Made by a program: the position numbers and the translations under genes. The notes under the pieces were generated by a model. That model was not told the DNA's origin and did not search any database. It worked only from the letters and a program-made list of their open reading frames with translations. DNA of 64,000 nt from Nocardioides sp. Soil797 (GTDB taxonomy: Bacteria > Actinomycetota > Actinomycetes > Propionibacteriales > Nocardioidaceae), in NCBI GenBank assembly GCA_001429555.1, contig LMSR01000001.1, forward strand, positions 242,687 to 306,686, in the 5' to 3' direction. Shown here in pieces: positions 45,275 to 64,000 of the stretch (position 1 is its first letter; every line of letters begins with the position of its first letter).

Positions 45275-45303
45275 TTGATTAAACGGTCAGACCATTCTAA
45301 TCT
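45275..45303 (+). promoter_or_regulatory. Sigma-70-type promoter with embedded GGTCAGACC operator, CoA-ligase gene 1
   Basis: TTGATT (45275-45280) and TAATCT (45298-45303) are 17 bp apart. Between them, 4 bp from each box, lies the perfect inverted repeat GGTC-A-GACC (45285-45293). The same arrangement is found at 58668-58696 ahead of the paralogous ligase. GGTCnGACC-type sites are recognised by FCD-subfamily GntR repressors. Confidence 0.72.
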
Positions 45304-45352
45304 GCGACATGTGTGATCGTCACCTCACCACGTCCTGAAAGAGGAACGCGCC

Positions 45353-47005
45353 ATGGCCGCCTTGAAGAATGTCCACGACAGGTACTCGGACGAGGAGATC
45401 GCCTCGTACTACGAGGCGGGCTTCTGGCAGAAGACCAGCTACAACGCCCTGGTCGCGCGTCAGGCCGAGGAGCGCCCCGACGCCACCTTCGTCTTCGACA
45501 GCACCACCTCCTACACCTACCGCGAGTTCGCGGAGCAGGCGTTGCGCCTGGCCGCCGGCCTGCACCGGGCCGGCGTACGTCGTGGTGAGCGGGTCGCCGT
45601 ACAGCTGCCCAACTGGACCGAGTTCGTGCTGGTCTCGGCGGCCACCTCGCGCATCGGCGCCGTGATCGTGCCGATCATGCCGATCTACCGCGACGACGAG
45701 GTCGGCTACGTCCTGCAGCACTCGGGCGCCGCGGTCGCCATCACCTGTGGTGAGATGCGCGGCTTCGACCACTCCGCGATGTTCGCCGAGCTGGCCCCGA
45801 ACTGTCCCGACCTGCGCGCCACCTACATCGCCCGTGCCGGCGCCGACCTCGACCCGGCCCTGGGCACTCCTCTCGACACCCTCTTCATCGACGGCGACCT
45901 CGACCAGCTGGCCGCCGAGATCGGCCCGGACAGCGACCCCGACGACGGGTTCCTCATCGTCTACACCTCGGGCACCACGTCACGGCCCAAGGGCTGCTTC
46001 CACACCTTCAACACCCTCCGCTCCAGCGCCGCCGCGATCGCCAAGAGCCTCGACTACGGCGTCGACGACGTGCAGTTCGGACCGTCACCGATCACCCACA
46101 GCACCGGCCTGGTCACCAGCGTCGTACTGCCCCTTCTCGTGGGCGCCCGCTCCTGCCTGATGGAGGCCTGGGACCCGACCGAGGGTCTGCGTCTGATCAA
46201 GGAGCACGGCTGCACGACCGCGGTCACCGCGACGCCCTTCCTGCAGATGCTGATGGGCGCCTACGACCCGGAGAAGCACGACGCCAGCAGCCTGCGCCGC
46301 TGGGTGTGCGCCGGCTCGCCGATCCCCGGCTCCGTCGTCGAGCAGGCCAGCAAGCTCTTCGCCGGTTGCCAGACGCTGAGTCTCTACGGCCGCTCGGAGA
46401 ACTTCCTGACCACGATGTGCACGGTCCACGACCCCGCCGAGCGCTCGGCCACCTCCGACGGCTCGGCCCTCGAGGGCGCCGCGATCAAGGTGGTCGACGC
46501 AGTGGGCAACGAGGTGCCACGGGGCGAGGAGGGCGACATCGCCTACAAGGGCCCCAGCCACATGATCGAGTACTACCGCAACGACGAGGAGACCGCCGCG
46601 CTCTTCACTCCCGAAGGCTTCTCCCGCTCCGGCGACCTCGGCAAGATGGACGACGAAGGCTTCGTGCGGGTCACCGGCCGACTCAAGGACATCGTGATCC
46701 GCGGTGGCATGAACATCAGCGCCCGCGAGCTCGAGGACCACCTCCTCGACCACCCGAAGATCGACTCGGTCGCCGTGGTCGGCATGCCCGACGAGCGCCT
46801 GGGCGAGAAGGTCTGCGTGTACGTCGTCCCGGCGGAGTCTGCGGAGATCACCCTCGACGACGTGGTCACCTACCTCAAGGAGCACAAGGTGGCCACCCAG
46901 AAGCTGCCGGAACGGCTCGAGATCATCAACGCGATGCCGATGACCGCGACCGGGAAGATCCAGAAACACGTGCTCCGCAGTGACATCGCGAAGAAGCTGT
47001 CATGA
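45353..47005 (+). CDS. AMP-dependent acyl-CoA ligase, paralogue 1
   Basis: A 550-residue adenylating ligase. Seen: FLIVYTSGTTSRPKGCFHTFNT (A3), LYGRSENFLT (A5, with Arg-Ser-Glu for the usual Thr-Glu), FSRSGDLGKMDDEGFVRVTGRLKDIVIRGGMNISARELE (A8) and MTATGKIQKHVLR (A10 Lys). It shares the opening VHDRY(S/T)DE and long identical stretches with the ligase at 58770, and both have the same promoter layout. AAAGAGG precedes the ATG. It overlaps the PucR regulator gene by 4 bp. Confidence 0.92.
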   Translation: MAALKNVHDRYSDEEIASYYEAGFWQKTSYNALVARQAEERPDATFVFDSTTSYTYREFAEQALRLAAGLHRAGVRRGERVAVQLPNWTEFVLVSAATSRIGAVIVPIMPIYRDDEVGYVLQHSGAAVAITCGEMRGFDHSAMFAELAPNCPDLRATYIARAGADLDPALGTPLDTLFIDGDLDQLAAEIGPDSDPDDGFLIVYTSGTTSRPKGCFHTFNTLRSSAAAIAKSLDYGVDDVQFGPSPITHSTGLVTSVVLPLLVGARSCLMEAWDPTEGLRLIKEHGCTTAVTATPFLQMLMGAYDPEKHDASSLRRWVCAGSPIPGSVVEQASKLFAGCQTLSLYGRSENFLTTMCTVHDPAERSATSDGSALEGAAIKVVDAVGNEVPRGEEGDIAYKGPSHMIEYYRNDEETAALFTPEGFSRSGDLGKMDDEGFVRVTGRLKDIVIRGGMNISARELEDHLLDHPKIDSVAVVGMPDERLGEKVCVYVVPAESAEITLDDVVTYLKEHKVATQKLPERLEIINAMPMTATGKIQKHVLRSDIAKKLS

Positions 47006-48336
47006 CCACCGCGCACCAGCTGCCCGACCCGGCTGACCTGCTGCGCCGGCACACGCAGCTGCAGCGCCGTCACGCCATCGAGCTCAAGCTGAGTGCCGTT
47101 GCCGCGGGCGGCGGGGGCATCGCCGGCCTGGTGCACACGGTGGCCGAGCTGACCGCCAACCCGATCTGGTTGATGGACACGCGACGCCGCGTGGTCGCCC
47201 GGTCCGCGCAGGTCCGTGGCTCCGACTTCCGTCCCCCTGAGCTCGACCTGCTCCTCGAGCGCAACGGCCCGGCCGACCTCTCCTCGCCCGAACCGCTCCT
47301 GGTGCAGGCCGAGCCGGCCCGCGGCATCGCCCGCCGCCACCTGCTGGTGCCGGTGGCCCGTGACGGTTGCCTCTTCGCCTGGTTGGTGCTCGCCGAGGTC
47401 TCCGGTCGGCTCAGCGGCTCCGACGCACACCTGGCCAAGCGGGCCGCCTTCCACCTCGCCAGCGAGTACGTCGTCCAGGGCCGCGTCGCACGCGCCTCCT
47501 GGAACGCGCGATCTGCGCTGGCCAGACAGCTGGTCCGTGGCTCGACGAGTGACGACGACGTCTCGGACGCGGCCGAATACCTCGGGGTCCAGGCCGACGC
47601 CGAGCGGGTGCTGGCCTACATCGCCGAAGGCCCGGGTGCCGAGCCACGCGACGAGGAGGCCATCTGCGAGCGCGTTGCCGCTCAACTGGGTGTCGAGGTG
47701 CTCGGCAGCCGGGGCCGCGAGGGCCTGCTGCTGTTGATCGAGTCGCCCGACGAGTCCGCCCACGTGACCTTCGTGCACGAGGTCAAGGACGTGATGCGAC
47801 GGCTGATGGTCGAGCTCGGTGAGCCCGACGGCATCGTGGGCCTCTCGGGTGTGAGCCGGCCCGGGTCCTTCCAACGTGCCTACCGCGAGACCCGCGAAGT
47901 GGTGCTCTGTGTCGACCGCTTCGCAGCCTCGGGGGAGCGGGTCATCGCCGTCGACGACCTCGGCCCTGCCCGACTCTTCGTCGCCAACAGCGACGTGGGT
48001 GCCGTGCGTCGCTACGTGCACGAGGTGCTCGGTGCACTCCTGACCGGCGCCCCGGGCACCGTCGACCTGCTGCGCACCCTGCAGTGCTTCTTCGACACGG
48101 GCCGCAGCGTGCGCGAATCCGCTGCCCGTCTGGGGATCCACGAGAACACCGTGCGGTTGCGCCTGGCCAAGGTGCACGACCTGACCGGCCTCGAGGTCGC
48201 TGCCGACGCCAACCACCAGCTCAGCGCCCAGACCGCGCTCCTGGTCCTCCGTCTGGAGGGCCACCCGGCGATTCCGTCCTTCGACGAACGGCACGCGCCC
48301 ACGGCCAAGAAGGACCGGGCGGTGGAGACTGCCTGA
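47002..48336 (+). CDS. PucR/CdaR-family transcriptional regulator
   Basis: A 444-residue regulator. A GAF-like N-terminal part (about 40-165) is followed by a GGDEF-like middle domain (about 190-330). The C-terminal PucR-type helix-turn-helix is at about 368-425 (LLRTLQCFFDTGRSVRESAARLGIHENTVRLRLAKVHDLTGL). It is translated in a coupled way between a CoA ligase (ATGA overlap) and an MDR oxidoreductase (TGATG overlap), so a regulator is buried inside an operon it may itself control. The effector may be the ligase product. Confidence 0.88.
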   Translation: MTTAHQLPDPADLLRRHTQLQRRHAIELKLSAVAAGGGGIAGLVHTVAELTANPIWLMDTRRRVVARSAQVRGSDFRPPELDLLLERNGPADLSSPEPLLVQAEPARGIARRHLLVPVARDGCLFAWLVLAEVSGRLSGSDAHLAKRAAFHLASEYVVQGRVARASWNARSALARQLVRGSTSDDDVSDAAEYLGVQADAERVLAYIAEGPGAEPRDEEAICERVAAQLGVEVLGSRGREGLLLLIESPDESAHVTFVHEVKDVMRRLMVELGEPDGIVGLSGVSRPGSFQRAYRETREVVLCVDRFAASGERVIAVDDLGPARLFVANSDVGAVRRYVHEVLGALLTGAPGTVDLLRTLQCFFDTGRSVRESAARLGIHENTVRLRLAKVHDLTGLEVAADANHQLSAQTALLVLRLEGHPAIPSFDERHAPTAKKDRAVETA

Positions 48337-49319
48337 TGCGCGGCATCCTCATCCCCGAGACGACCGGACCTGGCGCGGCCACGCACGCCGACGACCTGCC
48401 TGAGCCGACCGGAGCGCACCCGTGGGCCGACGGCGAACGCCTCCTGGTCGACGTACGTGCCGCGGCGGTGGCATTCCCCGACGTACTGCAGAGCAAGGGG
48501 CTCTACCAGCACGGCACCGAGACGCCGTACGTCACCGGCGGGGAGTACGCCGGCATCGTGCTCGACGCGCCGGCCTCCTCACGCTTCCGACCAGGCGACA
48601 GAGTTGCCGGCCTCAGCGTCTGGGGCGCCGCCGCCGAGCGTGTGCTGGGCATCCCGCGCTACACCGTGCGCCTTCCCGACCGCATGGACTGGGCCGACGG
48701 AGCCGCGTTCTTCCTCAACTACGCCACCGCCTGGTTCACCCTGCACCGCGCCGGCTTCACTGACGGCGAGTCCGTCCTGGTGCACGGCGCGGCCGGCGGA
48801 GTCGGTACGGCAACGCTCGATCTCCTGCGTGGTAAGGCGAAACCCTCCATCGCGGTGGTCTCCAGCGAGGTCAAGGCGCAGGTCGCTCGTGACTGTGGCG
48901 CGGACGAAGTGCTGCTCACCTCCGACGCCTGGGCCGCCCGCGCCCGCGAGCTGACCGACGGCAACGGCGTCGACGTGGTCGTCGACCCGGTCGGCGGTGA
49001 CCGGTTCACCGACTCGCTGCGCTCCCTCGACGTCGGCGGGCGACTGATGGTGGTCGGCTTCGCTGAGGGATCGATCCCCGAGGTGAAGGTCAACCGCCTG
49101 CTGCTGCGCAACCTGAGTGTGCTCGGGGTGGCACTCGACCCGTGGGAGAAGCGTTTCCCAGGCTATGCGCCGGAGCTGGTGGCCGGGCTCGAGGCTGCCG
49201 CAGAGGAGGGCCGGGTGCGCCCGTTCATCGGCGACCGGATCCCCTTCGACCGGGCGCACGAGGCGCTCGGGATCCTGGACCGGCGCGAAGCGCTCGGCAA
49301 GGTCGTCATCGAGTTCTGA
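48336..49319 (+). CDS. MDR-family NADPH:quinone oxidoreductase-like protein, paralogue 1
   Basis: A 327-residue medium-chain reductase without zinc ligands. Seen: TGGEYAGIVLDAP, a cofactor site [15 protein letters not shown], and VVVDPVGGDRFTDSLRSLDVGGRLMVVGFAEG. Quinone- or enoyl-reductase activity with NADPH is typical. It is closely related to the protein at 53694-54677 (GxxVARxxG core and MNRLLLRNL / VNRLLLRNL block). Third gene of the ligase-regulator operon; a 51-bp-period repeat array follows its stop. Confidence 0.88.
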   Translation: MRGILIPETTGPGAATHADDLPEPTGAHPWADGERLLVDVRAAAVAFPDVLQSKGLYQHGTETPYVTGGEYAGIVLDAPASSRFRPGDRVAGLSVWGAAAERVLGIPRYTVRLPDRMDWADGAAFFLNYATAWFTLHRAGFTDGESVLVHGAAGGVGTATLDLLRGKAKPSIAVVSSEVKAQVARDCGADEVLLTSDAWAARARELTDGNGVDVVVDPVGGDRFTDSLRSLDVGGRLMVVGFAEGSIPEVKVNRLLLRNLSVLGVALDPWEKRFPGYAPELVAGLEAAAEEGRVRPFIGDRIPFDRAHEALGILDRREALGKVVIEF

Positions 49320-49359
49320 GCGGGGCTTCGGCCTGCCCGTTTCGATCGGACAGAACGTC

Positions 49360-49480
49360 GCAGGTGCTGAGTTGTGACGGTGGTTCGGCGCTGGCTGTGG
49401 TCACGATCGTGCAGGTGCTGAGTTGTGACCTGGGATCGGCCCGTGTCGTGGTCGGAACGGCGCAGGTGCTGAGTTGTGAC
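49360..49480. repeat. 51-bp-period array, locus 1 (core GCAGGTGCTGAGTTGTGAC)
   Basis: Three identical 19-bp cores start at 49360, 49411 and 49462, exactly 51 bp apart. The two 32-bp intervals differ from each other. The array lies between convergent genes. A related core at the same 51-bp spacing occurs at 58518-58638. Confidence 0.88.
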
Positions 49481-49518
49481 GGTGGGATGGCGCGGATCAG
49501 CCGCAGATCTGCCGCGGA

Positions 49519-50055
49519 TCAGCCGTGGGTCAGCAGCACCTGCTCGGAGACCAGGGCGGGCTTCTCCTTGCCCTCGATCTCCATGACGTACTTGAACGTC
49601 AGGAACGTACGCGTACGGCCGGCGGTGTCACCGCTGCCCGCACCATCCGCGCCAGACCGGCTGCCACGCCGACCGTCAGACGGGCCATCCTTCTGGACAT
49701 CCCTCTCGGCGGAGAGCAGGCTGACGTGCAGCCGGATCCGGTCGCCGGCCGAGACGGGGGAGATGTAGCGCAGCCGGTTGGTGCCGTAGCTGAACGTCAG
49801 CCCGGGGTCGGGCACGTCGACGACCTGGTAGGAGAGCCTGGGGATCAACGAGAAGGTGAGCAGGCCGTGGGCGATGGGGCGTCCGCCGTCGAGCTCCCTG
49901 GCCGCCCGCTCCGGGTCGGAGTGCACCCACATGTGGTCACCGGTGAGGTCGGCGAAGCGATCGATGAGGTCCTGGTCGACGGTCATCCACCCACTGGCGC
50001 CGAAGTCCTCACCGACGCGGTGGGCGAGGTCGGCGTAGCGGTCCGCAGTGATCAT
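49519..50055 (-). CDS. MaoC-family dehydratase (hotdog fold) with inserted linker
   Basis: A 178-residue protein. RFADLTGDHMWVHSDPERAA and IAHGLLTFSLIP carry the Asp/His hydratase motif; YGTNRLRYISPVSAGDRIRLH follows. Between about residues 127 and 148 there is a hydrophilic Gly/Ser/Asp/Arg-rich insert (DGPSDGRRGSRSGADGAGSG) not found in typical members. Start ATG at 50055 overlaps the ligase stop by 4 bp. It probably hydrates an enoyl-CoA in the pathway of the ligase and SDR in the same reverse operon. Confidence 0.87.
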   Translation of the reverse strand: MITADRYADLAHRVGEDFGASGWMTVDQDLIDRFADLTGDHMWVHSDPERAARELDGGRPIAHGLLTFSLIPRLSYQVVDVPDPGLTFSYGTNRLRYISPVSAGDRIRLHVSLLSAERDVQKDGPSDGRRGSRSGADGAGSGDTAGRTRTFLTFKYVMEIEGKEKPALVSEQVLLTHG

Positions 50056-51581
50056 CGTCCTGCTCCTTGTGACGCTTCTTCCAACATCAGGACCTGTTCG
50101 CGCAAGTCGGCCTTGAGCACCTTGCCGGTTGGCCCGAGTGGCAGGGTCGCCATGGTGTGGATCTCGCGGGGGACCTTGTAGGCAGCAATGCGCTCGCGGC
50201 AGTGGTCGGTGATCGACCGCGCGCTGGCCTCGCGTCCATGCTGTGGCACCACGACGGCGACCGGGACCTCGCCGAGGCGGTCGTGCGGCAGCCCGATGAC
50301 GGCGCAGGTGGAGACGTCCGGATGCTCGGCGATCACCGCCTCGACCTCGGCCGGATAGATGTTGTTGCCGCCGCAGATGACCATCTCCTTCAGGCGATCG
50401 ACCAGGTAGAAGAATCCGTCCTCGTCGACATAGCCGATGTCGCCGCTGTGCCACCCGTCGGCGGTGATCGCCTTCTGTGCCTCGGGATCCTCGAAGTAGC
50501 CGGGGCTGACCGAGTCGCCACGGATCACCATCTCGCCCGGCTGCCCGGTCGGGACGGGGCGGCCGTCGGGGTCGAGCACCTGGATCTCCATGCTGCCGAT
50601 CGCCCGCCCGATCGACCCGATGCGGGGCCGGCCGCCGTGGGGCTCACCCGTGACGATCGCGGTCGTCTCGGTGGCGCCGTAGATCTGGCTCAACCGCACG
50701 CCAGTGATCTCCCGGAACCGGTCGATGAGTGCCGGAGGCGCGGCCGCACCCGCGGTCACCGCGGTCCTGATGTGGGAGAGGTCGTGGTGGGCGGGGTCGT
50801 AGAGCTCGCACAGGTCGACGTACATGGTGGGAGAGCCGAGAACCACGGTGACCCGGTGCCGGGTGATCAGCTCCAGGGCCTCGGCGGCGTTCCACCGCTC
50901 GAGGTGCACCATCGTGGCGCCGGCGAAGACGCTGGTGTTCATCACCCCGCTGGCGCCGAAGTTGTTGAAGAGGGGCATCACGTTGAGCATGACCTCGGCG
51001 CCGAACCGGAGCCGGTTGTGCACGAACATCGCGACGAGGCCACTCTGCTGGCCGCGTTCGGTCTGGATGACCGCCTTCGGCTGGCCCGTGGTGCCTGAGG
51101 TGAAGAACATGCAGACCGGGTCTTCCGGCCCGCGCACGACGTCCTCGAAGGTTTCGGATGCGGTGGCCAGCTCTGCCTCGATGCCCGCGTCTCCCACGCC
51201 TTCCCACACCAGCAGCTCCGCCGGCGGCTGCTCCATGCGGGCGACCTCGTCGCGACCCGCCGGATCGGTGACCACCCGTCGCATCCGGGTCTTGGAGGTC
51301 ACCCGGAACACCTCCGGAGCCCGGAACATCGGGTTGATCGGCACCGCAACAGCGCCGACCTTCTGCAGTGCCCAATAAGTCAGCGCGAGCTCGAGATTGC
51401 TGGGCAGGAGGATGCCGACCGGCTCGCCCTTGGCGACGCCGTGCTCGGTGAGGACGGTGGCCAGACAGCTGGCGCGCCGGTCGAACTCGGCATAGCTGAG
51501 CGTCGCGTCATCGGTGACGAAGAACGGCCGGTCGGGGTGAGCCGCGACCGCCGAGGAGAGCATCCGGGAGAGGGTCTGCAC
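50052..51581 (-). CDS. AMP-dependent acyl-CoA ligase
   Basis: A 509-residue adenylate-forming enzyme. Seen: A3 VCMFFTSGTTGQPKAVIQT, A5 LSQIYGATETTAIV, A8 WHSGDIGYVDEDGFFYLVDRLKEMVICGGNNIYPAEVE, and A10 LPLGPTGKVLKADLRE with the catalytic Lys. A GTG start at 51581 is used; it lies 43 bp downstream of the SDR stop. It makes a CoA ester in an operon with an SDR and a MaoC hydratase. Acid unknown. Confidence 0.92.
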   Translation of the reverse strand: MQTLSRMLSSAVAAHPDRPFFVTDDATLSYAEFDRRASCLATVLTEHGVAKGEPVGILLPSNLELALTYWALQKVGAVAVPINPMFRAPEVFRVTSKTRMRRVVTDPAGRDEVARMEQPPAELLVWEGVGDAGIEAELATASETFEDVVRGPEDPVCMFFTSGTTGQPKAVIQTERGQQSGLVAMFVHNRLRFGAEVMLNVMPLFNNFGASGVMNTSVFAGATMVHLERWNAAEALELITRHRVTVVLGSPTMYVDLCELYDPAHHDLSHIRTAVTAGAAAPPALIDRFREITGVRLSQIYGATETTAIVTGEPHGGRPRIGSIGRAIGSMEIQVLDPDGRPVPTGQPGEMVIRGDSVSPGYFEDPEAQKAITADGWHSGDIGYVDEDGFFYLVDRLKEMVICGGNNIYPAEVEAVIAEHPDVSTCAVIGLPHDRLGEVPVAVVVPQHGREASARSITDHCRERIAAYKVPREIHTMATLPLGPTGKVLKADLREQVLMLEEASQGAGR

Positions 51582-51624
51582 GAGGTTCCTTCGGGTGTGG
51601 GTCGGTTGACCGGAGAAGAGTTGC

Positions 51625-52416
51625 TCAGAAGAGGAGTACGCCGCCGTCGACCGGCACGCCGACGCCGGTGATGTAGGAAGAGGCTGGGCTGGCCAGGAAC
51701 ACCGCGGTACTGGCGATCTCGACGGGGTCGCCGAGCCGGCCGCCCGGCACCCGTGCCTTGACGATCTTGGCCTGGTAGTTGGGGCTGTAGTTGGCGGTGG
51801 CCTCGGTCAGGAAGACGCCGGGCAGGATCGCGTTGACCCGGATGCCCTTCTCGCCCCACTGGGCGGCGAGGTCGCGGGTCATGCCGAGTACTCCGGCCTT
51901 GGCCGCGCTGTAGCCGGCGGCCGGCATCTTTGCGGTGGTCACCGCCATCACGCTGGAGAGGTTCACCACCGCGCCGCCTTCCGGCATCACGCGGCCGGCG
52001 GCCTGGGCCATCCAGTAGGAGCCCATCAGGTTGACGTCGACTACTTGGCGGAAGTGATCGGGCGGGTCCTCGGTGGCGGCGTGGTACTCGCCGCCGATGC
52101 CGGCGTTGTTCACCAGCACGTCGCAGCCGCCGAGCTCGTCGACCGCGGATTGCACGAGGCGGTTGCAGTCCTCGACCTTGGTCACGTCGGTCTCGACGGC
52201 GATGCAGCGGCGGCCGAGCCCTTCGACCAGTTGCCGGGTCTCGTCGAGCATCTCGACGCGCCGCGCGCCGATGGCCACGTCGGCACCTGCTGCCGCGAGG
52301 CCCTGGGCGATCGCGACGCCCAGGCCGCTGGAGGCGCCGGTGACGATGGCGACCTTGCCGTCGAGGCGGAACCGGTCCTGCCACGCGGTGAATTCCTGTG
52401 ATGTCTGGGGGAGCAT
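51625..52416 (-). CDS. SDR-family oxidoreductase
   Basis: A 263-residue classical SDR: TGASSGLG, NNAGIGG, Ser in NLSSVMAVTT, and GYSAAKAGVLGMTR with the Tyr and Lys, then ILPGVFLTEAT. Likely a 3-hydroxyacyl-CoA or alcohol dehydrogenase. First gene of a reverse operon (SDR, ligase, MaoC), divergent from the kinase-like gene 124 bp away. Confidence 0.91.
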   Translation of the reverse strand: MLPQTSQEFTAWQDRFRLDGKVAIVTGASSGLGVAIAQGLAAAGADVAIGARRVEMLDETRQLVEGLGRRCIAVETDVTKVEDCNRLVQSAVDELGGCDVLVNNAGIGGEYHAATEDPPDHFRQVVDVNLMGSYWMAQAAGRVMPEGGAVVNLSSVMAVTTAKMPAAGYSAAKAGVLGMTRDLAAQWGEKGIRVNAILPGVFLTEATANYSPNYQAKIVKARVPGGRLGDPVEIASTAVFLASPASSYITGVGVPVDGGVLLF

Positions 52417-52539
52417 GAGCCTGTTCTACTCCGGTTCCCGGGCCAGTCACGACGACCGACCTCGAGGACGGTGTGGGCCCCTCCATCGCGGTGTTCCTTG
52501 CCTGTTGCCGCTGTTGGGCCGGGTGCGCAGAGTGGTGGC

Positions 52540-53604
52540 GTGCGAGAACTTGATCCAGACGACCTGATCCAGCGAGCTACCGCGGCTGCCCGGCGTACGA
52601 CGCCCTCGGCGCGGGTGCGTGGCCTGCGGGCGCTCGAGGGAGGCGTCTCGAGCCTCACCTATGCCTCCGAGCTCGCCGACGGCGACGGGTCCCAGCCGAT
52701 CGTGCTCAAGGTGGCGCCGCCCGACCTCGAGCCGGTGCGCAACCGTGACGTGCTGCGCCAGGCACGGGTGCTGCACCAGTTGGCCGATCTCCCCGGATTC
52801 CCGGTGCCGGCGGTGCTCTTCGAGGACGCCGGCGATCCTCCCGGCGTACCCCCGTTGTTCGCGATGCAGTTGCGACCGGGCGACTCCTACGAGCCCCTGC
52901 TCGACGTCTCGCCGACGCCGCCGACCCCCGAGGTGGCCGCCGAGCGGATGCGGGTCGCGGCCCGCGCGCTGGCCCGGTTGCAGCACGAGACGCCGGAGTC
53001 GGTCGGGCTGGGCGACGAGCCGGTCTCGCCGGTGACGGAGGAACTGGAGCGGTGGCAGCGACTGTTCGCCACCGTCGATGCCGACATCGGCGTCGGCCAC
53101 GAGAAGCTCTACGGGCGGTTGAGCCAGGGCGCCCCCGAGGGGATCGCGCCGCGCGTGCTGCATGGTGACTACCGGCTGGCCAACATGCTATTCACCGACA
53201 CGACGCTCGAGGCCGTCATCGACTGGGAGATCTGGTCGGCCGGCGACCCGCGCTCTGACCTGGCGTGGTTGCTGATGCACGCCGAGGCTGCTCATGTCTT
53301 CCACGAGGACCGCTCCGAGGCCGACCTGGCCTCCGGGTCGCTCCTGCCGTCACAGGCCGAGCTGGTCGAGGTGTACGCCGCCGCGCGGCGCGAGCTCGGC
53401 GCGAGTGAGGGCGAGGTCTCGGCCGCCACCTCGGAGCTGGAGTGGTTCCTCGGCGTCTGCTACTACAAGACCGCCTCGACGATCGCGGTGATCTGGAAGC
53501 GAGAGCGGAAGCGGGAAAGTCCGGCGCTCAAGCTCGAGATCGCGGCCCGGCATCTCGGCGAGGTGCTCGATGCCGGGCACGCGGTCCTCGACCGACTGAC
53601 CTGA
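52540..53604 (+). CDS. Phosphotransferase family protein (APH/choline kinase fold)
   Basis: A 354-residue kinase-like protein. Seen: GGVSSLTYASEL (nucleotide loop), IVLKVAP with the ATP-site Lys, VLHGDYRLANMLF (catalytic Asp and Asn) and VIDWEIWSAGDPRSDLAWLL (metal Asp). Close relatives are the APH-like proteins that accompany acyl-CoA dehydrogenases and the N-terminal kinase domain of ACAD10/11, proposed to phosphorylate 4-hydroxyacyl-CoAs. It lies among acyl-CoA genes here, so that role is possible. GTG start chosen at the beginning of the conserved region. A hairpin follows its stop. Confidence 0.87.
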   Translation: MRELDPDDLIQRATAAARRTTPSARVRGLRALEGGVSSLTYASELADGDGSQPIVLKVAPPDLEPVRNRDVLRQARVLHQLADLPGFPVPAVLFEDAGDPPGVPPLFAMQLRPGDSYEPLLDVSPTPPTPEVAAERMRVAARALARLQHETPESVGLGDEPVSPVTEELERWQRLFATVDADIGVGHEKLYGRLSQGAPEGIAPRVLHGDYRLANMLFTDTTLEAVIDWEIWSAGDPRSDLAWLLMHAEAAHVFHEDRSEADLASGSLLPSQAELVEVYAAARRELGASEGEVSAATSELEWFLGVCYYKTASTIAVIWKRERKRESPALKLEIAARHLGEVLDAGHAVLDRLT

Positions 53605-53617
53605 CCTCGTCTCCGTG

Positions 53618-53677
53618 CCGTTACCGAACAGTCCGCATGATCTGGGCGCGCAAAACATGCGGACTGTTCGGTAGCGG
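53618..53677. terminator. Bidirectional terminator between convergent genes
   Basis: 22-bp arms (ACCGAACAGTCCGCATG and its complement inside) with a single T-G wobble and a 16-nt loop. It is placed 14 bp after the kinase-like stop and 17 bp before the end of the convergent MDR gene. Confidence 0.78.
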
Positions 53678-53693
53678 CTGACGAGGAGGCCGG

Positions 53694-54677
53694 TCAGTGG
53701 GGGACGGTGACGACGACCTTGCCGACGGCGGTGCGGTCCTCGAGCGCGGCGAGCGCGTCGGAGGCCTTCTCCATCGGGTAGGTGGCACCGATCTCGGGTC
53801 GCAGCCGGCCGGCGTCCAGCAGTTCCTGGACACCGAGGCGGACGTGGTCGAGGGTGCCGGGGAACTCGGTCTCCATCACGTCCATCGTGATGCCGGTGAC
53901 GGTGAGATTGCGCAGCAGCAGCCGGTTCATCTTCAGAGACGGGATGGATCCACCGGCGAAGCCGACGATCACGCCGCGGCCACCGATGCGCAGCGAGCGC
54001 ACGACGTCGAGGAACCCGTCACCGCCGACCATGTCGACGAAGACCTGCACGCCACCGCCGGTGAGCTCGCGGACCTCGTCGAGCCAGCCCTCCTCTGTGC
54101 GTACGACGTGGGTGGCGCCCGCGGCCTTCGCGGTGGCGGCCTTGGCGTCGCTGGAGACCAGGCCGATCGAGTCGATCCCGGCGATGCGGCACAGGTCGTG
54201 GACGCAGGTGCCGACACCACCGGCGGCGCCGGTCACCAGCACCGTCTCGCCGGACTTGGCGCCGGCCCGGTCCAGCGCATACCAGGCGGTCGCGTAGTTC
54301 ATGTAGATCCCGGCGCCCTCCTCGTAGGACATGTCGTCGGGCAGTCGCACCAGGAAGTCGTCGATCGCCAACGCCTGCTCGGCCATCGCGCCCTGCCAGA
54401 CGATCCCGGCCACCCGGTCGCCGGGCTTCACCCACGAGTCCTCGGGAGCCTCCAACACCTTCCCGGACAGCTCCGACCCGCAGACGTACGGCGCATCGAC
54501 GCCGGCCTGGTACTTCCCTCGCGTCTGCAACGGGTCGATGAAGGAGAGCCCCACAGCATGGACCTCCACCAGCACCCGTCGGCCCGCGGCGCGGCGGTGC
54601 GCGCCCTCCGGCTCAGGGACCTCGCGGACCTTCGCGGCCCCGGGTCCGTCCAGCGTCTCGACGACGACTGCCAACAT
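53694..54677 (-). CDS. MDR-family NADPH:quinone oxidoreductase-like protein, paralogue 2
   Basis: A 327-residue protein, exactly the length of the paralogue at 48336-49319. Seen: CGSELSGKVLEAP, VTGAAGGVGTCVHDLC, and VFVDMVGGDGFLDVVRSLRIGGRGVIVGFAGG. No zinc ligands. AGGAGAAG precedes the ATG. It probably shares a transcript with the MaoC gene 72 bp upstream. Reductase or dehydrogenase on an enoyl-CoA or quinone; substrate unknown. Confidence 0.88.
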   Translation of the reverse strand: MLAVVVETLDGPGAAKVREVPEPEGAHRRAAGRRVLVEVHAVGLSFIDPLQTRGKYQAGVDAPYVCGSELSGKVLEAPEDSWVKPGDRVAGIVWQGAMAEQALAIDDFLVRLPDDMSYEEGAGIYMNYATAWYALDRAGAKSGETVLVTGAAGGVGTCVHDLCRIAGIDSIGLVSSDAKAATAKAAGATHVVRTEEGWLDEVRELTGGGVQVFVDMVGGDGFLDVVRSLRIGGRGVIVGFAGGSIPSLKMNRLLLRNLTVTGITMDVMETEFPGTLDHVRLGVQELLDAGRLRPEIGATYPMEKASDALAALEDRTAVGKVVVTVPH

Positions 54678-54749
54678 GTTCTTCTCCTCTGGTCAGCTCA
54701 GGTGGGTGGTGCCGCGGCTCAGCCTCCAGGGCCGGAGCCGGAAAGTACG

Positions 54750-55214
54750 TCAGTCGAAGTAGGCGAAGACTGATTCGGCCACACAGGCCGGCTTCTCCTG
54801 GCCCTCGATCTCGAAGGTCTGGCGGGTGCGGAACTTCGAGCCGCCGTCGAGCGGCTCCACGGCGAGCAGCTCCTGGGTCATCCGCAACCGGGCGCCGAGC
54901 TTGACCGGGGAGATGAACCGGACCTTCTCGAAGCCGTAGTTGAGAGCCAAGGAGTGGCCGCTCATCGTGAAGATCTCGTACTGGAACTTCGGGCCGAGCG
55001 AGAGCGTGTAGAGCCCGTGGGCGATGTTGGTGCCGAACGGGGAGTTGGCGCCCCGCTCGGGGTTCATGTGGATCTCCTCCCAGTCCTCGGTGGCGTCGGC
55101 AAAGCCGGTGATCCGCTCGCGGGTGATCTCGAACCAGTCGGTCGTGCCGAGCACCTGCCCCTCGAGGGCCCGGAGCTCGTCAACGCTGGTCATCACCTTG
55201 GTCTCAGTCTTCAT
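54750..55214 (-). CDS. MaoC-family dehydratase
   Basis: A 154-residue hotdog protein: DATEDWEEIHMNPERGA and IAHGLYTLSLGPKF carry the hydratase motif, and NYGFEKVRFISPVKLGARLR follows. GGGGAC precedes the ATG at 55214; the much longer open frame upstream belongs to the complement of the acyl-CoA dehydrogenase and is rejected. It would hydrate the product of the divergent acyl-CoA dehydrogenase (start 55368). Confidence 0.88.
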   Translation of the reverse strand: MKTETKVMTSVDELRALEGQVLGTTDWFEITRERITGFADATEDWEEIHMNPERGANSPFGTNIAHGLYTLSLGPKFQYEIFTMSGHSLALNYGFEKVRFISPVKLGARLRMTQELLAVEPLDGGSKFRTRQTFEIEGQEKPACVAESVFAYFD

Positions 55215-55367
55215 GTCCCCATCGAACCTCGCGGATCGCACGCCGGCGACCCTTCGCGCCGAGGCCGGTGGAGAACTCGACAGCGGCCGAGAACGTACGA
55301 CGCGGCCGACGGCAGGCGGCAGACCTACCGTCGGTGACATCAGGAAATAACTAGCTGGAGGAACACC

Positions 55368-56624
55368 ATGGACTGGTCCATCCCCGAGGACGTCACGTCC
55401 TTCATTGCCGACCTCGACGACTTCATCGACACCAAGATAAAGCCGATCGAGGAGGCCAACCCGGAGCACTTCGACCACCGGCGCGAGTTCACCCGCACGG
55501 ACCTGGAGCGGGGCGGCATCCCGACGCGGCGCTGGCGCGAGATCATGCTCGAGGCCCGCAAGCTGGCCGACGCGGCCGGCTTCTACCGCTACCCGCTGCC
55601 GAAGGAGCTCGGTGGTCAGGACGGCTCCAACGTCGCGATGGCCGTGATCCGTGAGCACCTGGCCCGTCGCGGTCCGGGCTTGCACGCGGAGCTGAGCCAC
55701 GAGGCCTCGATGGTGGCGAACGTGCCGCTGGCGCTGGTGCTGCACGAGTACGGCACACCGGAGCAGAAGGAGCAGTACCTCGAGCGGCTGGTCTCCGGCG
55801 ACATGGAGATGGCCTTCGGGCTCACCGAGCCCAACCACGGCAGCGATGTCACGTGGCTCGAGACCAAGGCGGTGCGGGACGGGGACGACTGGATCATCAC
55901 CGGCGCCAAGCGCTGGAACAGTGTCGTCGACGTCTCCGAGGTTGACCTGGTCTTCGCCCGCACCAGTGGTGAGGACGGCAAGGCCGAGGGCATCTCCGCC
56001 TTCCTGGTGCCGACGAACGCCGAGGGCTTCGAGGTGCCGTTCTACTGGTGGACCTTCAACATGCCCACCGACCACGCCGAGGTGAAGCTCAACGGGGTCC
56101 GTGTTCCGGGTGCCGCCATGGTCGGCGAGGAGGGTCGTGGCCTGGACTGTGCGCAGCTCTTCGTGCACGAGAACCGGATCCGTCAGGCGGCCAGCTCGCT
56201 CGGGGCCGCCCAGTTCTGCATCGACAAGTCGATCGAGTACACCGAGGAGCGCAGGCTCTTCGGCCAGCAGATGCGTGACTACCAGGGCGTCCAGTGGCAG
56301 CTCGTCGAGCTGCAGACCGAGGCCGAGCTGGTGCGCAACACCATCATGAAGACCGCCTGGGAGATGGATGAGCACGGCAAGACCGCGGTGAGCGACAAGG
56401 TGGCCATGGTCAACGTGCGCGGAAACCAGTTGGCCTGCAACGCGGCCGACCGGGCGATGCAGATCCACGGTGGGGTCGGCTACAGCCGGCACTACCCCTT
56501 CGAGCACATCTACCGCCACCACCGCCGCTACCGCATCACCGAGGGCTCCGACGAGCTGCAGTACCGCCGGATCGCGGCCGGCATGTGGAACTTCCGATCC
56601 GAGCCGAAGAGCTCAGCTCGCTGA
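55368..56624 (+). CDS. Acyl-CoA dehydrogenase
   Basis: A 418-residue flavoprotein. Seen: FGLTEPNHGSDVTWLETKAV, WIITGAKRWNSVV, HENRIRQAASSLG, and YRITEGSDELQYRRIAAG with the catalytic Glu. Slightly long at the N-terminus, with a helical segment (DDFIDTKIKPIEEANP). GGAGG upstream of the ATG is strong. It is divergent from the MaoC-MDR pair, and its 3' end overlaps the convergent TetR gene by 12 bp. Confidence 0.93.
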   Translation: MDWSIPEDVTSFIADLDDFIDTKIKPIEEANPEHFDHRREFTRTDLERGGIPTRRWREIMLEARKLADAAGFYRYPLPKELGGQDGSNVAMAVIREHLARRGPGLHAELSHEASMVANVPLALVLHEYGTPEQKEQYLERLVSGDMEMAFGLTEPNHGSDVTWLETKAVRDGDDWIITGAKRWNSVVDVSEVDLVFARTSGEDGKAEGISAFLVPTNAEGFEVPFYWWTFNMPTDHAEVKLNGVRVPGAAMVGEEGRGLDCAQLFVHENRIRQAASSLGAAQFCIDKSIEYTEERRLFGQQMRDYQGVQWQLVELQTEAELVRNTIMKTAWEMDEHGKTAVSDKVAMVNVRGNQLACNAADRAMQIHGGVGYSRHYPFEHIYRHHRRYRITEGSDELQYRRIAAGMWNFRSEPKSSAR

Positions 56625-57173
56625 ACCGCGGTCGCCGTACAACCCATGAAGGGTCAGTTCCAGGAGCAACTCCGCGACGGCGGGGGCAGCCAGTGCGCGC
56701 TCGGGCCACACGGCCACGGAGAACACCGTGCCGAGGCAGGCCTGGGTGGTGGCCGCCACCGTCGGCGCGGGGAGTCCCGGGAAACGGGCGGCGACCAATG
56801 CCTCCCAGCTGCGGGTGTACTGCCCGCGGCGACGGGTGAAGGCCTTCGACCACGGCTCAGCCAGCGAACGCACCTCGCGCTGGTGGAGCGTGACCAGCTG
56901 CCGGTTCTCCAAGGCGAAGTCGATGTGGTGACGGATCGCGCGTCGCAACTCGGTGTCGGGGTCCTCGCCGGTGGGGCGGGTGGCCGCCAGCAGCTCGTCC
57001 ATCGCCTCGTTGAGCAGGGTGGCCAGGATCTCGTCCTTGCCGGAGAAGTGCCGATAGATCGAGGGGCCGCTCAGGCCGGCGCGCTTGCCGAGCTCGTCGA
57101 CGCCGACGCCGTGGAAGCCCTTCTCATGAAAGGCCGTGGCGGCCGCGTCGAGAATTGTCCGGTGGCGTCCCAC
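56613..57173 (-). CDS. TetR-family transcriptional regulator
   Basis: A 186-residue regulator: HTH about residues 4-50 (HRTILDAAATAFHEKGFHGVGVDELGKRAGLSGPSIYRHFSGKDEIL), then a helical ligand domain typical of acyl-CoA-responsive actinobacterial TetR proteins. GTG start at 57173 is supported by TACGGT 6 nt upstream; an in-frame alternative at 57281 is less likely. The palindrome GAACGATCGTTC just upstream is its probable autoregulatory site. It may control the convergent or divergent acyl-CoA genes. Confidence 0.88.
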   Translation of the reverse strand: MGRHRTILDAAATAFHEKGFHGVGVDELGKRAGLSGPSIYRHFSGKDEILATLLNEAMDELLAATRPTGEDPDTELRRAIRHHIDFALENRQLVTLHQREVRSLAEPWSKAFTRRRGQYTRSWEALVAARFPGLPAPTVAATTQACLGTVFSVAVWPERALAAPAVAELLLELTLHGLYGDRGSAS

Positions 57174-57179
57174 GGCGGC

Positions 57180-57185
57180 ACCGTA
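57180..57185 (-). promoter_or_regulatory. -10 element (TACGGT) of a likely leaderless promoter for the tetR-type gene
   Basis: TACGGT-GCCGCC-GTG on the reverse strand. Decides the start of the TetR gene. Confidence 0.5.
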
Positions 57186-57196
57186 GCATGGTCCCG

Positions 57197-57208
57197 GAAC
57201 GATCGTTC
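57197..57208. promoter_or_regulatory. Palindromic operator GAACGATCGTTC
   Basis: A perfect 12-bp palindrome 11 bp upstream of the reverse -10 and 64 bp upstream of the LuxR-type start, so bound TetR could repress both directions. Confidence 0.6.
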
Positions 57209-57271
57209 GCATGAGGCGTACGTCGTCCCGGTGCCGGGGGCGGTCGCCGCCCGGAGTCAGGAGGGAAGCTG

Positions 57272-58480
57272 ATGCAGTCATCGTCCGCGGACGCGTCCCG
57301 GCGGCGCTCGGAGCTGGTCGTCCAGGGCAAGGCCGCCTTCACGACCGCGATCCGCCTGGTCGAGTCGATGCCGATGACCGAGCATGCCGCGGACGAGTTC
57401 GCCGAGCTGGAGCACACACCTTCGGGTGAGCTGCGGACGCTGGACGGACAGTTGACGATCGTCGCGGGCATGATGCGCGAGCGGCTGGGGGACCCTGCCC
57501 ATGAAGTCAGCAGGAAGCAGGTCGTGGAGTTGAGCGAGACGCTGCATGCGGTCCACCAGGTCCGATTCTCGATCCATGACGTCCTGGGCCATGAGCGGCT
57601 GCGTCGTCTCGATCAGCTCGACGGCGAGCTGGCCAAGCTGCGTCGGATCACCGACCAGGACGAGCTGCTCGAGAGGGTCTGCGAGTCGGCGGCGGCGGGT
57701 GGGGGCTTCGAGGGCGTGATGCTCTCGCGCGTGGAGGAAGGAATGTGGCGCCCGTGGCGCGCCCACTCGATCCGCAACGGTCCGCCCGAGCGTGCCTTCG
57801 CCGCCTGGATCAAGGAAGTGCCAGAGATCCAGCTCTCCCACATGCTCCTGGAGAGCGAGGTCGTACGCCGTCGCGAGCCGGCCATGGTTGCCGACGCAAG
57901 CAGCGACAGTCGGGTCTACCAACCGCTGGCGCAGGCGGCCGCGCAGACGTCGTACGTCGTCGCGCCGCTGATCGCGGGAGACCGGGTGATCGGGCTGTTG
58001 CACGCCGACAACCGGGGCCATGACGTCGTCGAGCTCGACCGCGACATCCTGTGGTTCTATGCGGTCGGGTTCGCCCAGATCTTCGAGCGTGCCGTGCTGC
58101 TCGGTCGGTTGCGCGACCAGCGTGCGGAGGTGATGCGGGTGATGCAGACGGTCGAGGCGGTGCTCGATGACCTCGCCTCCAGTGAGATCGACCTCGCCAC
58201 GCGGCAGGAGACAACCGTCCTGGCAGTCAGTCGTCCGCTGCGCCCGGTCGCGATCGACCGTCCGGCCGTGCTCGAGGGGCTGCTGACCAGCCGCGAGCTC
58301 GAGGTGCTGGCGTTGATGGCGACCGGGGCCACCAACGAACGCATCGGACAGCGGCTGGTGATCGCCGTGGGAACGGTGAAGTCACACGTCAAGCAGATCC
58401 TGCGCAAGCTGCGGGTCGAGAACCGTGCCGAGGCGATCTCGCAGTACCTCCGGTTGACGATCGGTGCCCGCGAGGACTGA
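57272..58480 (+). CDS. LuxR-family regulator with GAF domain
   Basis: A 402-residue protein. GAF-like domain about residues 130-275 (FEGVMLSRVEEGMWRPWRAHS ... TSYVVAPLIAGDRVIGLLHADNRG). LuxR helix-turn-helix about 335-390 (LTSRELEVLALMATGATNERIGQRLVIAVGTVKSHVKQILRKL). It is a clear paralogue of the regulator at 37139-38257. AGGAGGG precedes the ATG. It is upstream of a CoA ligase-acyl-CoA dehydrogenase operon, separated by a repeat array, and may respond to its substrate. Confidence 0.88.
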   Translation: MQSSSADASRRRSELVVQGKAAFTTAIRLVESMPMTEHAADEFAELEHTPSGELRTLDGQLTIVAGMMRERLGDPAHEVSRKQVVELSETLHAVHQVRFSIHDVLGHERLRRLDQLDGELAKLRRITDQDELLERVCESAAAGGGFEGVMLSRVEEGMWRPWRAHSIRNGPPERAFAAWIKEVPEIQLSHMLLESEVVRRREPAMVADASSDSRVYQPLAQAAAQTSYVVAPLIAGDRVIGLLHADNRGHDVVELDRDILWFYAVGFAQIFERAVLLGRLRDQRAEVMRVMQTVEAVLDDLASSEIDLATRQETTVLAVSRPLRPVAIDRPAVLEGLLTSRELEVLALMATGATNERIGQRLVIAVGTVKSHVKQILRKLRVENRAEAISQYLRLTIGARED

Positions 58481-58493
58481 TCCGGCTTCTGGG

Positions 58494-58650
58494 GGTTGGT
58501 CCCGGGGCCCGAAGCCCGCAGGTGCGTGGTTGTGACGGTGTGCGGGGGTTGGTGGGGGCCCGAAGCCCGCAGGTGCGTGGTTGTGACGGTGTGCGGGGGT
58601 TGGTGGGGGCCCGAAGCCCGCAGGTGCGTGGTTGTGACCGGCCCGGGGCC
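58494..58650. repeat. 51-bp-period array, locus 2 (core GCAGGTGCGTGGTTGTGAC)
   Basis: Three cores start at 58518, 58569 and 58620, exactly 51 bp apart. Here the 32-bp intervals are also identical. The core matches that of the array at 49360 in 16 of 19 positions and the period is the same, so the two arrays are related. Confidence 0.88.
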
Positions 58651-58667
58651 CGCCCTCGCGGCAGCCA

Positions 58668-58696
58668 TTGCCTATTCGGTCTGACCATTGTAATGT
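58668..58696 (+). promoter_or_regulatory. Sigma-70-type promoter with embedded GGTCTGACC operator, CoA-ligase gene 2
   Basis: TTGCCT (58668-58673) and TAATGT (58691-58696) are 17 bp apart, and GGTC-T-GACC (58678-58686) sits 4 bp from each. The positions are identical to those at 45275-45303. Confidence 0.72.
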
Positions 58697-63619: not shown

Positions 63620-64000
63620 TCAGTGCTCGGTCACCTGGATGGCGGTTCGTTCGTCGACCTCGAGCACCGCTTCGGCGTAGCTGTGCACGTGCCGCTGCAT
63701 CCGGCGTACGGCGGCAGCGGGGTCCTGGTTGCGGATCGCATCGGTGATGGACTTGTGGGCCTTGACCGTCGTCTTGCGGACCGTGTCGTCGATGAAGCCC
63801 TTGTTGTCGGTGGACTCGTAGATCGCGCGGGAGAGGGCGAGCATGAAGCCGTTGAGCAAGTCGTTGTGTGAGGCGACCGCGACCGCCACGTGCCACTCGA
63901 CGTTGGCGGTCAGGAACTCCGAGAGCGGACCGGCCCCTGCGATGGCGTCGTTGGCCAGCTCGAGCCGCTCGACATCGGCGGAGGTGCGGTACTGCGCGGC
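63620..64000 (-). CDS. GntR-family regulator, FCD-domain C-terminal part (5' end outside window)
   Basis: The C-terminal about 126 residues of an FCD-type GntR regulator. Seen: NVEWHVAVAVASHNDLLNGFMLALSRAIY with the metal-binding His, and ITDAIRNQDPAAAVRRMQRHVHSYAEAVL with the His pair. The DNA-binding domain is beyond the window edge. It converges on the ligase-dehydrogenase-synthetase operon. FCD-type GntR proteins bind GGTCnGACC-like sites, and two such sites lie in the two ligase promoters, so it is the best candidate regulator (inference). Confidence 0.88.
   Translation of the reverse strand, partial: AAQYRTSADVERLELANDAIAGAGPLSEFLTANVEWHVAVAVASHNDLLNGFMLALSRAIYESTDNKGFIDDTVRKTTVKAHKSITDAIRNQDPAAAVRRMQRHVHSYAEAVLEVDERTAIQVTEH

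What the first reader, a model, noticed from the sequence alone, without database searches (positions are those of the whole stretch)
45275..58696. Two paralogous CoA-ligase operons share one promoter-operator design
At 45275-45303 and 58668-58696 the order is -35 box, 4 bp, GGTC(A/T)GACC, 4 bp, -10 box, always with 17 bp between boxes, although other bases differ. The downstream genes are paralogous ligases. An FCD-type GntR regulator ends at 63620. Together this suggests a two-operon regulon blocked by one repressor bound between -35 and -10.
Basis: partly seen in the sequence, partly recalled or inferred. Interest (0 to 1): 0.72.

Follow-up and report, generated by a model that had tools for sequence, protein, structure and literature searches.

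The report
Shared repressor switch, acid-breakdown genes
Two neighbouring gene sets for breaking down organic acids carry the same short mirror-image DNA site inside their predicted start signals; genome comparisons show that the site travels with the regulator gene next door, which likely binds it and would hold these and at least two further gene starts shut until an acid arrives.

Summary
It is not chance. The composite occurs twice in this genome and 19 times in 12 of 293 relatives (reversed control: 1 match). 18 of the 19 precede orthologues of these two operons, and 11 of the 12 genomes are the very 11 genus members that carry the 63620 regulator (GntR-A). The 9-mer is 0.90-0.98 identical between species against about 0.30 in the upstream flank. 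Of 79 actinobacterial GntR-A genes, 72 have a GGTMNKACC-type palindrome upstream (controls 2 and 13); in 52 of 62 distinct cases a TANNNT box ends 1 bp before it. So GntR-A very probably owns the operator and represses itself. Corrections: the regulon is larger (gntR-A/ACAD78 divergon and ACAD79 promoter at least); the promoters, not the ligases, are the constant part; the operator matches published FadR-subfamily and E. coli LldR boxes; invariant pocket residues hint at a free carboxylate rather than a CoA ester. A paralogue 10 kb away (GntR-B) may share sites. Binding, start sites and effector are untested.

The parts
45275..45280 (+). -35 box TTGATT of promoter 1 (predicted)
   Evidence: TTG kept at this distance in 9 of 10 orthologous promoters examined, 1 bp further away in G136
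45285..45293 (.). operator GGTCAGACC of promoter 1 (predicted)
   Evidence: mean pairwise identity 0.90 across 10 genomes against about 0.30 upstream; exact GGTCWGACC in 7 of 10
45298..45303 (+). -10 box TAATCT of promoter 1 (predicted)
   Evidence: TANNNT in 10 of 10
45353..47005 (+). acyl-CoA ligase LIG1 (AMP-binding)
47002..48336 (+). PucR-type regulator, second gene of operon 1
   Evidence: first gene behind promoter 1 in genomes without LIG1
58668..58673 (+). -35 box TTGCCT of promoter 2 (predicted)
   Evidence: TTG in 11 of 11
58678..58686 (.). operator GGTCTGACC of promoter 2 (predicted)
   Evidence: GGTCWGACC in 11 of 11 genomes
58691..58696 (+). -10 box TAATGT of promoter 2 (predicted)
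   Evidence: TANNNT in 11 of 11
58770..60443 (+). acyl-CoA ligase LIG2 (AMP-binding)
60443..61642 (+). acyl-CoA dehydrogenase (ACAD75), second gene of operon 2
   Evidence: first gene behind promoter 2 where LIG2 is absent
61653..63596 (+). acetyl-CoA-synthetase-like ligase, third gene of operon 2
63620..64000 (-). GntR-A, FCD-type GntR regulator (cut by the window end; full gene C1:306306-307079)

Best explanation
GGTCWGACC at 45285-45293 and 58678-58686 is likely the operator of the FCD-type GntR protein encoded from 63620 (GntR-A), which is predicted to sit between the predicted -35 and -10 boxes of both operons and so would keep RNA polymerase off until a substrate-derived acid, as inferred from its pocket, releases it. 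The same protein is predicted to repress itself and the divergent acyl-CoA dehydrogenase operon through GGTCATACC at C1:307116-307124, and a second acyl-CoA dehydrogenase operon through GGTCGTACC at C1:308314-308322; three more exact sites (C1:318164, 329711, 369343) are candidate members. Shown here: the sites, their phase to the predicted boxes, their conservation, and their co-occurrence with gntR-A. Inferred: binding, repression, transcription starts. Weakest step: the effector, for which three invariant histidines and an asparagine in the FCD pocket suggest a metal-bound free carboxylate.
For: Composite motif in 12 of 293 relatives, 18 of 19 matches before orthologues of these two operons; GntR-A (E <= 1e-90) in 12 of 293, overlapping in 11 (hypergeometric 5e-18, not corrected for shared ancestry). 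Phylogenetic footprint: 9-mer identity 0.90 and 0.98, upstream flank about 0.30, downstream 0.37-0.40. Autoregulation: 72 of 79 actinobacterial GntR-A genes have GGTCNKACC or GGTMNGACC between -300 and +30 against 2 and 13 of 79 for two control patterns, GGTCWGACC itself in 33 of 79 (some loci are near-duplicates); a TANNNT box ends 1 bp before the operator in 52 of 62 distinct cases. Specificity: GGTCWGACC upstream of ACAD75 in 27 of 39 loci, but 0 of 58, 2 of 57, 0 of 54, 0 of 36 and 0 of 39 for SDR80, THL81, SDR86, HMGL85 and ACS76. The core fits the FadR-subfamily consensus GTM-N0-1-KAC (PMC4494728) and the E. coli LldR box AAnTGGTCnGACCAnTT (PMC10272880). The residues aligned with FadR's G-contacting arginines, R53 and R63, are invariant in 81 of 81 (contacts).
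Against: No binding or expression data. GntR-B, a paralogue 10 kb away, has an exact GGTCTGACC at its own promoter, whereas GntR-A's is GGTATGACC. 7 of 79 GntR-A genes lack an upstream site of this type, 12 of 39 ACAD75 genes and 13 of 18 LIG2 homologues lack GGTCWGACC, and only 15 of 64 ACAD79 genes have the palindrome. G251 has no site at gntR-A and G136 none at ACAD79. Outside Nocardioides the exact -35/4/operator/4/-10 order was seen in only two of the 80 loci, L151 and L166; the -10 register before ACAD75 elsewhere is ambiguous. The -35 hexamer as a whole is less conserved (0.59 and 0.78) than the operator. One composite hit (G006) is at an unrelated locus. The -10 boxes match TATAAT in only 3 of 6 positions.
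Confidence: 0.85

Rival explanations
1. GntR-B (C1:317274-318038), not GntR-A, is the repressor that uses GGTCWGACC in this genome; GntR-A keeps only the variant sites.
For: Of the genome's 7 FCD regulators, GntR-B is the only one with exact GGTCWGACC at its own promoter. It carries Ala instead of Thr at the recognition-helix position that correlates with the bases flanking the centre (position from PMC4494728).
Against: Among the 11 genus genomes with the two promoters, a GntR-B orthologue (76% or more) was found only in G000 and G150 (the genome-wide GntR-B search covered 116 relatives, the rest were seen only in the fetched stretches), while GntR-A is in all 11 and exact GGTCWGACC serves GntR-A itself in 33 of 79 loci. 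The Ala/Thr argument fails in G008, whose GntR-A also has Ala.
Confidence: 0.08
2. Both paralogues bind the same operators in this genome, a two-repressor node formed after GntR-B arrived with its own gene set.
For: 43% identical proteins sharing the residues aligned with FadR's DNA-contact arginines; sites of the same core at both regulator genes.
Against: No test of cross-binding; specificity may differ.
Confidence: 0.3
3. The palindrome is bound by an activator or by another local regulator (PucR at 47002, LuxR at 57272).
For: Both regulators lie inside the same gene region.
Against: A site between -35 and -10 is a repressor position, and the palindrome is the FadR-subfamily motif. PucR and LuxR73 homologues (55% identity or more, complete upstream) were seen in only 1 and 4 of the 80 loci of up to 21 kb, whereas the palindrome was upstream of 72 of 79 GntR-A genes.
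Confidence: 0.04
4. Chance similarity of two promoters.
For: The 9-mer alone is frequent (62 sites).
Against: Composite control 0 in this genome and 1 match in 293 genomes against 19; footprint conservation.
Confidence: 0.01

Closest known systems
E. coli LldR (FCD/FadR-subfamily GntR), box AAnTGGTCnGACCAnTT (PMC10272880)
   Same: Same core palindrome GGTCnGACC; NCBIfam LldR, PdhR and NanR models are the three best hits of GntR-A.
   Different: Scores far below the family cut-offs (LldR 95.6 of 311, PdhR 96.2 of 330, NanR 107.1 of 260); sites at acyl-CoA catabolic operons instead of lactate genes. Compared with the solved C. glutamicum relative 2DI3, Asn stands in place of a pocket Asp.
FadR-subfamily regulons described by comparative genomics (PMC4494728)
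   Same: GTM-N0-1-KAC core; a single site in a divergon, which that paper says usually serves both sides.
   Different: I recognised this regulator and its regulon in none of the listings of my literature searches (several lists were capped).
BadR (MarR) of cyclohexane-carboxylate clusters (PMC9795900)
   Same: Repressor of a ligase/dehydrogenase operon; operator overlaps the predicted -35 box; recognises the first pathway intermediate (CHC-CoA).
   Different: Other protein family and operator (CAAN4TTG); Gram-positive bad-ali clusters carry TetR-like regulators according to that paper.
chcpca cluster of Rhodococcus aetherivorans BCP1 (PMC5906575)
   Same: CoA ligase, acyl-CoA dehydrogenase, BadH-like dehydrogenase and enoyl-CoA hydratase set.
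   Different: Two TetR-like regulators; the word GntR does not occur in the text.

Membership tests
FadR subfamily (GntR HTH + FCD domain) | N-terminal GntR winged HTH and C-terminal FCD domain over the curated cut-offs | tested here: met
   PF00392 66.4 bits (cut-off 27), PF07729 85.9 bits (cut-off 24.3); best structural matches include 6AZ6 (GntR), 6ON4 (NanR) and 2DI3, with low TM-scores (0.36-0.57 of the query in the first ten) and a model of moderate quality (pLDDT 75.7, pTM 0.57)
FadR subfamily (GntR HTH + FCD domain) | Operator with GTM-N0-1-KAC core | tested here: met
   GGT-CAG-ACC, GGT-CTG-ACC, GGT-CAT-ACC, GGT-CGT-ACC in this genome; consensus from PMC4494728
FadR subfamily (GntR HTH + FCD domain) | DNA-contact arginines equivalent to E. 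coli FadR Arg35 and Arg45 | tested here: met
   R53 and R63 invariant in 81 of 81; equivalence by alignment to the table
Metal-binding FCD regulators | Asp plus three His in the effector pocket (recalled) | tested here: inconclusive
   H168, H213, H235 invariant in 81 of 81, but the Asp position is Asn in 81 of 81; no metal was tested
LldR / PdhR / NanR orthologues | Score over the NCBIfam equivalog or subfamily cut-off | tested here: not met
   All far below cut-off
Acyl-CoA-binding FadR of E. coli | Effector is an acyl-CoA | not testable with these tools
   No ligand data

The most novel reading that the evidence does not exclude
One undescribed FCD regulator runs an actinobacteria-wide acid-catabolism regulon in which the repressor site is welded to the promoter in a fixed phase - between -35 and -10 at the catabolic operons, 1 bp after the -10 box at its own gene - while the first gene behind the promoter (either ligase, PucR or a dehydrogenase) is freely swapped; it senses the free acid through a metal held by Asn and three His, and in two species a captured paralogue has plugged into the same operators.
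Probability: 0.25. Interest if true: 0.55.

Novelty: new member of a known kind. Interest (0 to 1): 0.42.

Why it matters
A pair of look-alike promoters turns out to be part of a regulon whose regulator can be followed from Nocardioides to Rhodococcus, Nocardia, Amycolatopsis, Gordonia, Pseudonocardia, Frankia and Streptomyces. It gives an apparently uncharacterised, widespread regulator a predicted operator, target list and repression geometry that can be tested directly, and supplies candidate acid-responsive promoters of natural design. It also shows that a promoter-operator unit can stay in place while the first gene behind it comes and goes.

Tried and rejected
GntR-B as sole regulator: considered seriously because only its promoter among 7 FCD genes has the exact 9-mer; weakened because it was not found in most genomes that keep the operators. 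Recognition-helix position 39 (Thr in GntR-A, Ala in GntR-B) as a discriminator: dropped, since G008's GntR-A also has Ala. The 9-mer alone as regulon marker: rejected (62 sites; a crude GC3-based ORF test puts 56 of them under an open frame, but that test also counts promoter sites such as 301364, 329711 and 369343 as coding because mechanical frames extend upstream, so I do not use it). A genome-contig scan with GntR-B found no relative. Pathway identity: NCBIfam hits to the cyclohexanecarboxylate-CoA ligase (429.5 of 792.3), BadH (306.4 of 431.2) and PimC (199.2 of 623.9) models are below cut-off, so the substrate stays open. The strict promoter scan does not call these promoters. In one search the G000 row of the gntR-A promoter set was entered one base off, so I cite no identity values for that set; one search repeats that promoter for the 12 cluster genomes by gene start.
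Full report
Observation. The genes behind them are AMP-binding acyl-CoA ligases, 295 of 548 residues identical. Operon 1 is LIG1 (45353-47005) followed by a PucR-type regulator (47002-48336); operon 2 is LIG2 (58770-60443), an acyl-CoA dehydrogenase (ACAD75, 60443-61642) and an acetyl-CoA-synthetase-like ligase (ACS76, 61653-63596). The FCD regulator (here GntR-A) is convergent with operon 2, ends at 63620 and continues past the window to C1:307079 (the window is C1:242687-306686).

Chance. The 9-mer occurs 62 times in the genome against 23 for the reversed control, so alone it is weak. The composite TTGN7GGTCWGACCN4TANNNT occurs only at these two places in the genome (reversed control 0). In 293 relatives (own genome included) it occurs 19 times in 12 genomes, reversed control 1 match in 1 genome. 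Downstream of the 19 matches lie LIG1 (3), LIG2 (5), ACAD75 (6), PucR (4) and one unrelated locus in G006 (zinc-alcohol-dehydrogenase and histidine-phosphatase genes nearby). So 18 of 19 stand before these two operons or their orthologues.

Co-occurrence with the regulator. GntR-A (E <= 1e-90) is present in 12 of 293 relatives: 11 of the window's genus, the window's own among them, and one of another family (G178). The 11 genus genomes are the same 11 in which the composite precedes one or both operons; hypergeometric 5e-18, which ignores shared ancestry.

Footprint. Promoter 1 was compared in 10 genomes (that of G008 lies outside the stretch I fetched) and promoter 2 in 11. Mean pairwise identity is 0.90 and 0.98 in the 9-mer, 0.90 and 0.84 in the -10 hexamer, 0.59 and 0.78 in the whole -35 hexamer, 0.29-0.31 further upstream and 0.40 and 0.37 downstream. 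Promoter 2 has GGTCWGACC in 11 of 11; promoter 1 has it in 7 of 10, with GGTCCAACC, GGTCATACC and GGTCCGACC at the same place in G136, G230 and G251. A TTG-headed hexamer lies 4 bp before the operator in 9 of 10 and 11 of 11 (5 bp in G136), TANNNT 4 bp after it in 10 of 10 and 11 of 11.

The ligases are not the constant. In the stretches examined, LIG1 is present in 6 of 11 genus genomes, LIG2 in 5 of 11, both in 3, neither in 3 (G137, G033, G222). Where a ligase is missing, the same promoter stands directly before PucR or ACAD75, both of which are present in all 11. The design therefore belongs to the operon promoters, not to a duplicated ligase.

The regulon is larger than two operons. In this genome GGTMNKACCAW has 22 distinct places (24 matches; reversed control 13), three of them copies of one contig-end sequence (C1:74, C12:74, C16:47); 7 of the 22 fall in C1:287971-369351, 1.9% of the genome (binomial 1e-7). 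They are the two given promoters; GGTCATACC at C1:307116-307124 between gntR-A and the divergent dehydrogenase ACAD78; GGTCGTACC at C1:308314-308322 before dehydrogenase ACAD79; and GGTCTGACC or GGTCAGACC at C1:318164 (between GntR-B and a 799-aa PEP-utiliser-domain gene), C1:329711 (before an enoyl-CoA hydratase) and C1:369343 (before a PPDK-like gene). In the 12 cluster genomes (11 genus members and G178), a GGTNNNACC site lies within 200 bp upstream of gntR-A in 11 (not G251) and of ACAD79 in 11 (not G136; 9 of them in the stricter form).

Phylum-wide test. A scan with seven GntR-A orthologues returned 117 relatives, of which the best 80 were kept: Nocardioides, Amycolatopsis, Kribbella, Nocardia, Rhodococcus, Gordonia, Pseudonocardia, Frankia, Streptomyces and others; six of them are records already met above, and some are near-duplicates. 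Of 79 loci with a complete upstream region, 72 have GGTCNKACC or GGTMNGACC between -300 and +30 of gntR-A; control patterns gave 2 and 13; GGTCWGACC itself is there in 33. GGTCWGACC lies upstream of ACAD75 in 27 of 39 loci and of LIG2 homologues in 5 of 18, but in 0 of 58, 2 of 57, 0 of 54, 0 of 36 and 0 of 39 for SDR80, THL81, SDR86, HMGL85 and ACS76. The stricter palindrome is upstream of ACAD78 in 9 of 11, ECH99 in 24 of 53 and ACAD79 in only 15 of 64, so membership varies. In A/T-rich context there are 193 GGTN3ACC against 24 CCAN3TGG, with centre CAG/CTG the commonest (78). At the gntR-A gene a TANNNT box ends exactly 1 bp before the operator in 52 of 62 distinct cases, so the repressor would cover the start. 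At ACAD75 a TANNNT lies 4-5 bp after the operator in 20 of 25, but boxes at 0 and 2 bp fit 12 sequences each, so that register is ambiguous. The exact TTG-4-operator-4-TANNNT order appears outside Nocardioides only in two of the 80 loci, Amycolatopsis saalfeldensis (L151, before both a LIG1 and an ACAD75 homologue) and Citricoccus zhacaiensis (L166).

Which regulator. The genome has 7 FCD regulators. GntR-B (C1:317274-318038), 43% identical to GntR-A, has GGTCTGACC in its own divergent promoter. Among the 11 genus genomes a GntR-B orthologue was found only here and in G150; a genome-wide search for it covered 116 relatives, the others were seen in the fetched stretches only. Because the operators persist where GntR-B was not found and accompany GntR-A across the phylum, GntR-A is the best owner; shared use in this genome is possible and untested.

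Mechanism. A dimer on GGTCWGACC between -35 and -10 would block RNA polymerase (inference from position; BadR on ligase operons is an analogue whose operators overlap predicted -35 boxes, PMC9795900). The core equals the FadR-subfamily consensus GTM-N0-1-KAC (PMC4494728) and the centre of the E. coli LldR box (PMC10272880); the arginines aligned with those that contact G in FadR are invariant in 81 of 81. N164, H168, H213 and H235 are invariant in 81 of 81; N164 aligns with an Asp of C. glutamicum 2DI3 and the histidines with its histidines, which I recall as the metal site; NanR, a relative, holds zinc with histidines (PMC8012715). This suggests a metal-held free carboxylate as effector, but no ligand evidence exists. 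The predicted structure is of moderate quality (pLDDT 75.7, pTM 0.57) and its best PDB matches are GntR/FCD regulators at low TM-scores.

Pathway. Ligases, four acyl-CoA dehydrogenases, thiolase, HMG-CoA-lyase-family and BadH-like genes, and in G150 an acetyl-CoA hydrolase/transferase-family gene between the thiolase and lyase genes, suggest beta-oxidation of a branched or cyclic acid; the ring-acid equivalog models tested stayed below their cut-offs, so the substrate is open.

Literature seen: PMC4494728 (abstract, two sections), PMC10272880, PMC8012715, PMC9795900, PMC5906575 and PMC4591350 (passages only). In the listings I recognised no paper that describes this regulator or regulon; two searches showed 20 of 104 and 20 of 583 papers, and the library lacks most subscription journals.

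Noticed in passing
58491-58638: Tandem repeat of a 51-bp G-rich unit, 2.9 copies, directly upstream of promoter 2 and after the LuxR-type gene.
   Followed up: partly
C1:317274-320624 (L032:11275-14625): A second FCD regulator (GntR-B) divergent from a 799-aa protein whose only Pfam hit is a PEP-utiliser mobile domain, next to P450 and aldehyde dehydrogenase genes; among the 11 genus genomes with the cluster this set was found only here and in G150.
   Followed up: partly
47002-48336: A PucR-type regulator is the second gene of operon 1, so a GntR-to-PucR regulatory cascade is possible.
   Followed up: no
C1:74, C12:74, C16:49: Three contig ends share one sequence that contains GGTCTGACC, probably a repeat that broke the assembly.
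   Followed up: no
G225:C1:1648350-1650081: LIG2 is found in pieces in different frames in this relative while its promoter-operator matches the full composite pattern.
   Followed up: no
G008:C30:174904, G137:C1:215889, G033:C10:431440, G222:C24:114512: A third paralogue, 51-57% identical to GntR-A, sits 29-39 kb away in four relatives beside homologues of branched-chain-type ABC transporter genes.
   Followed up: no
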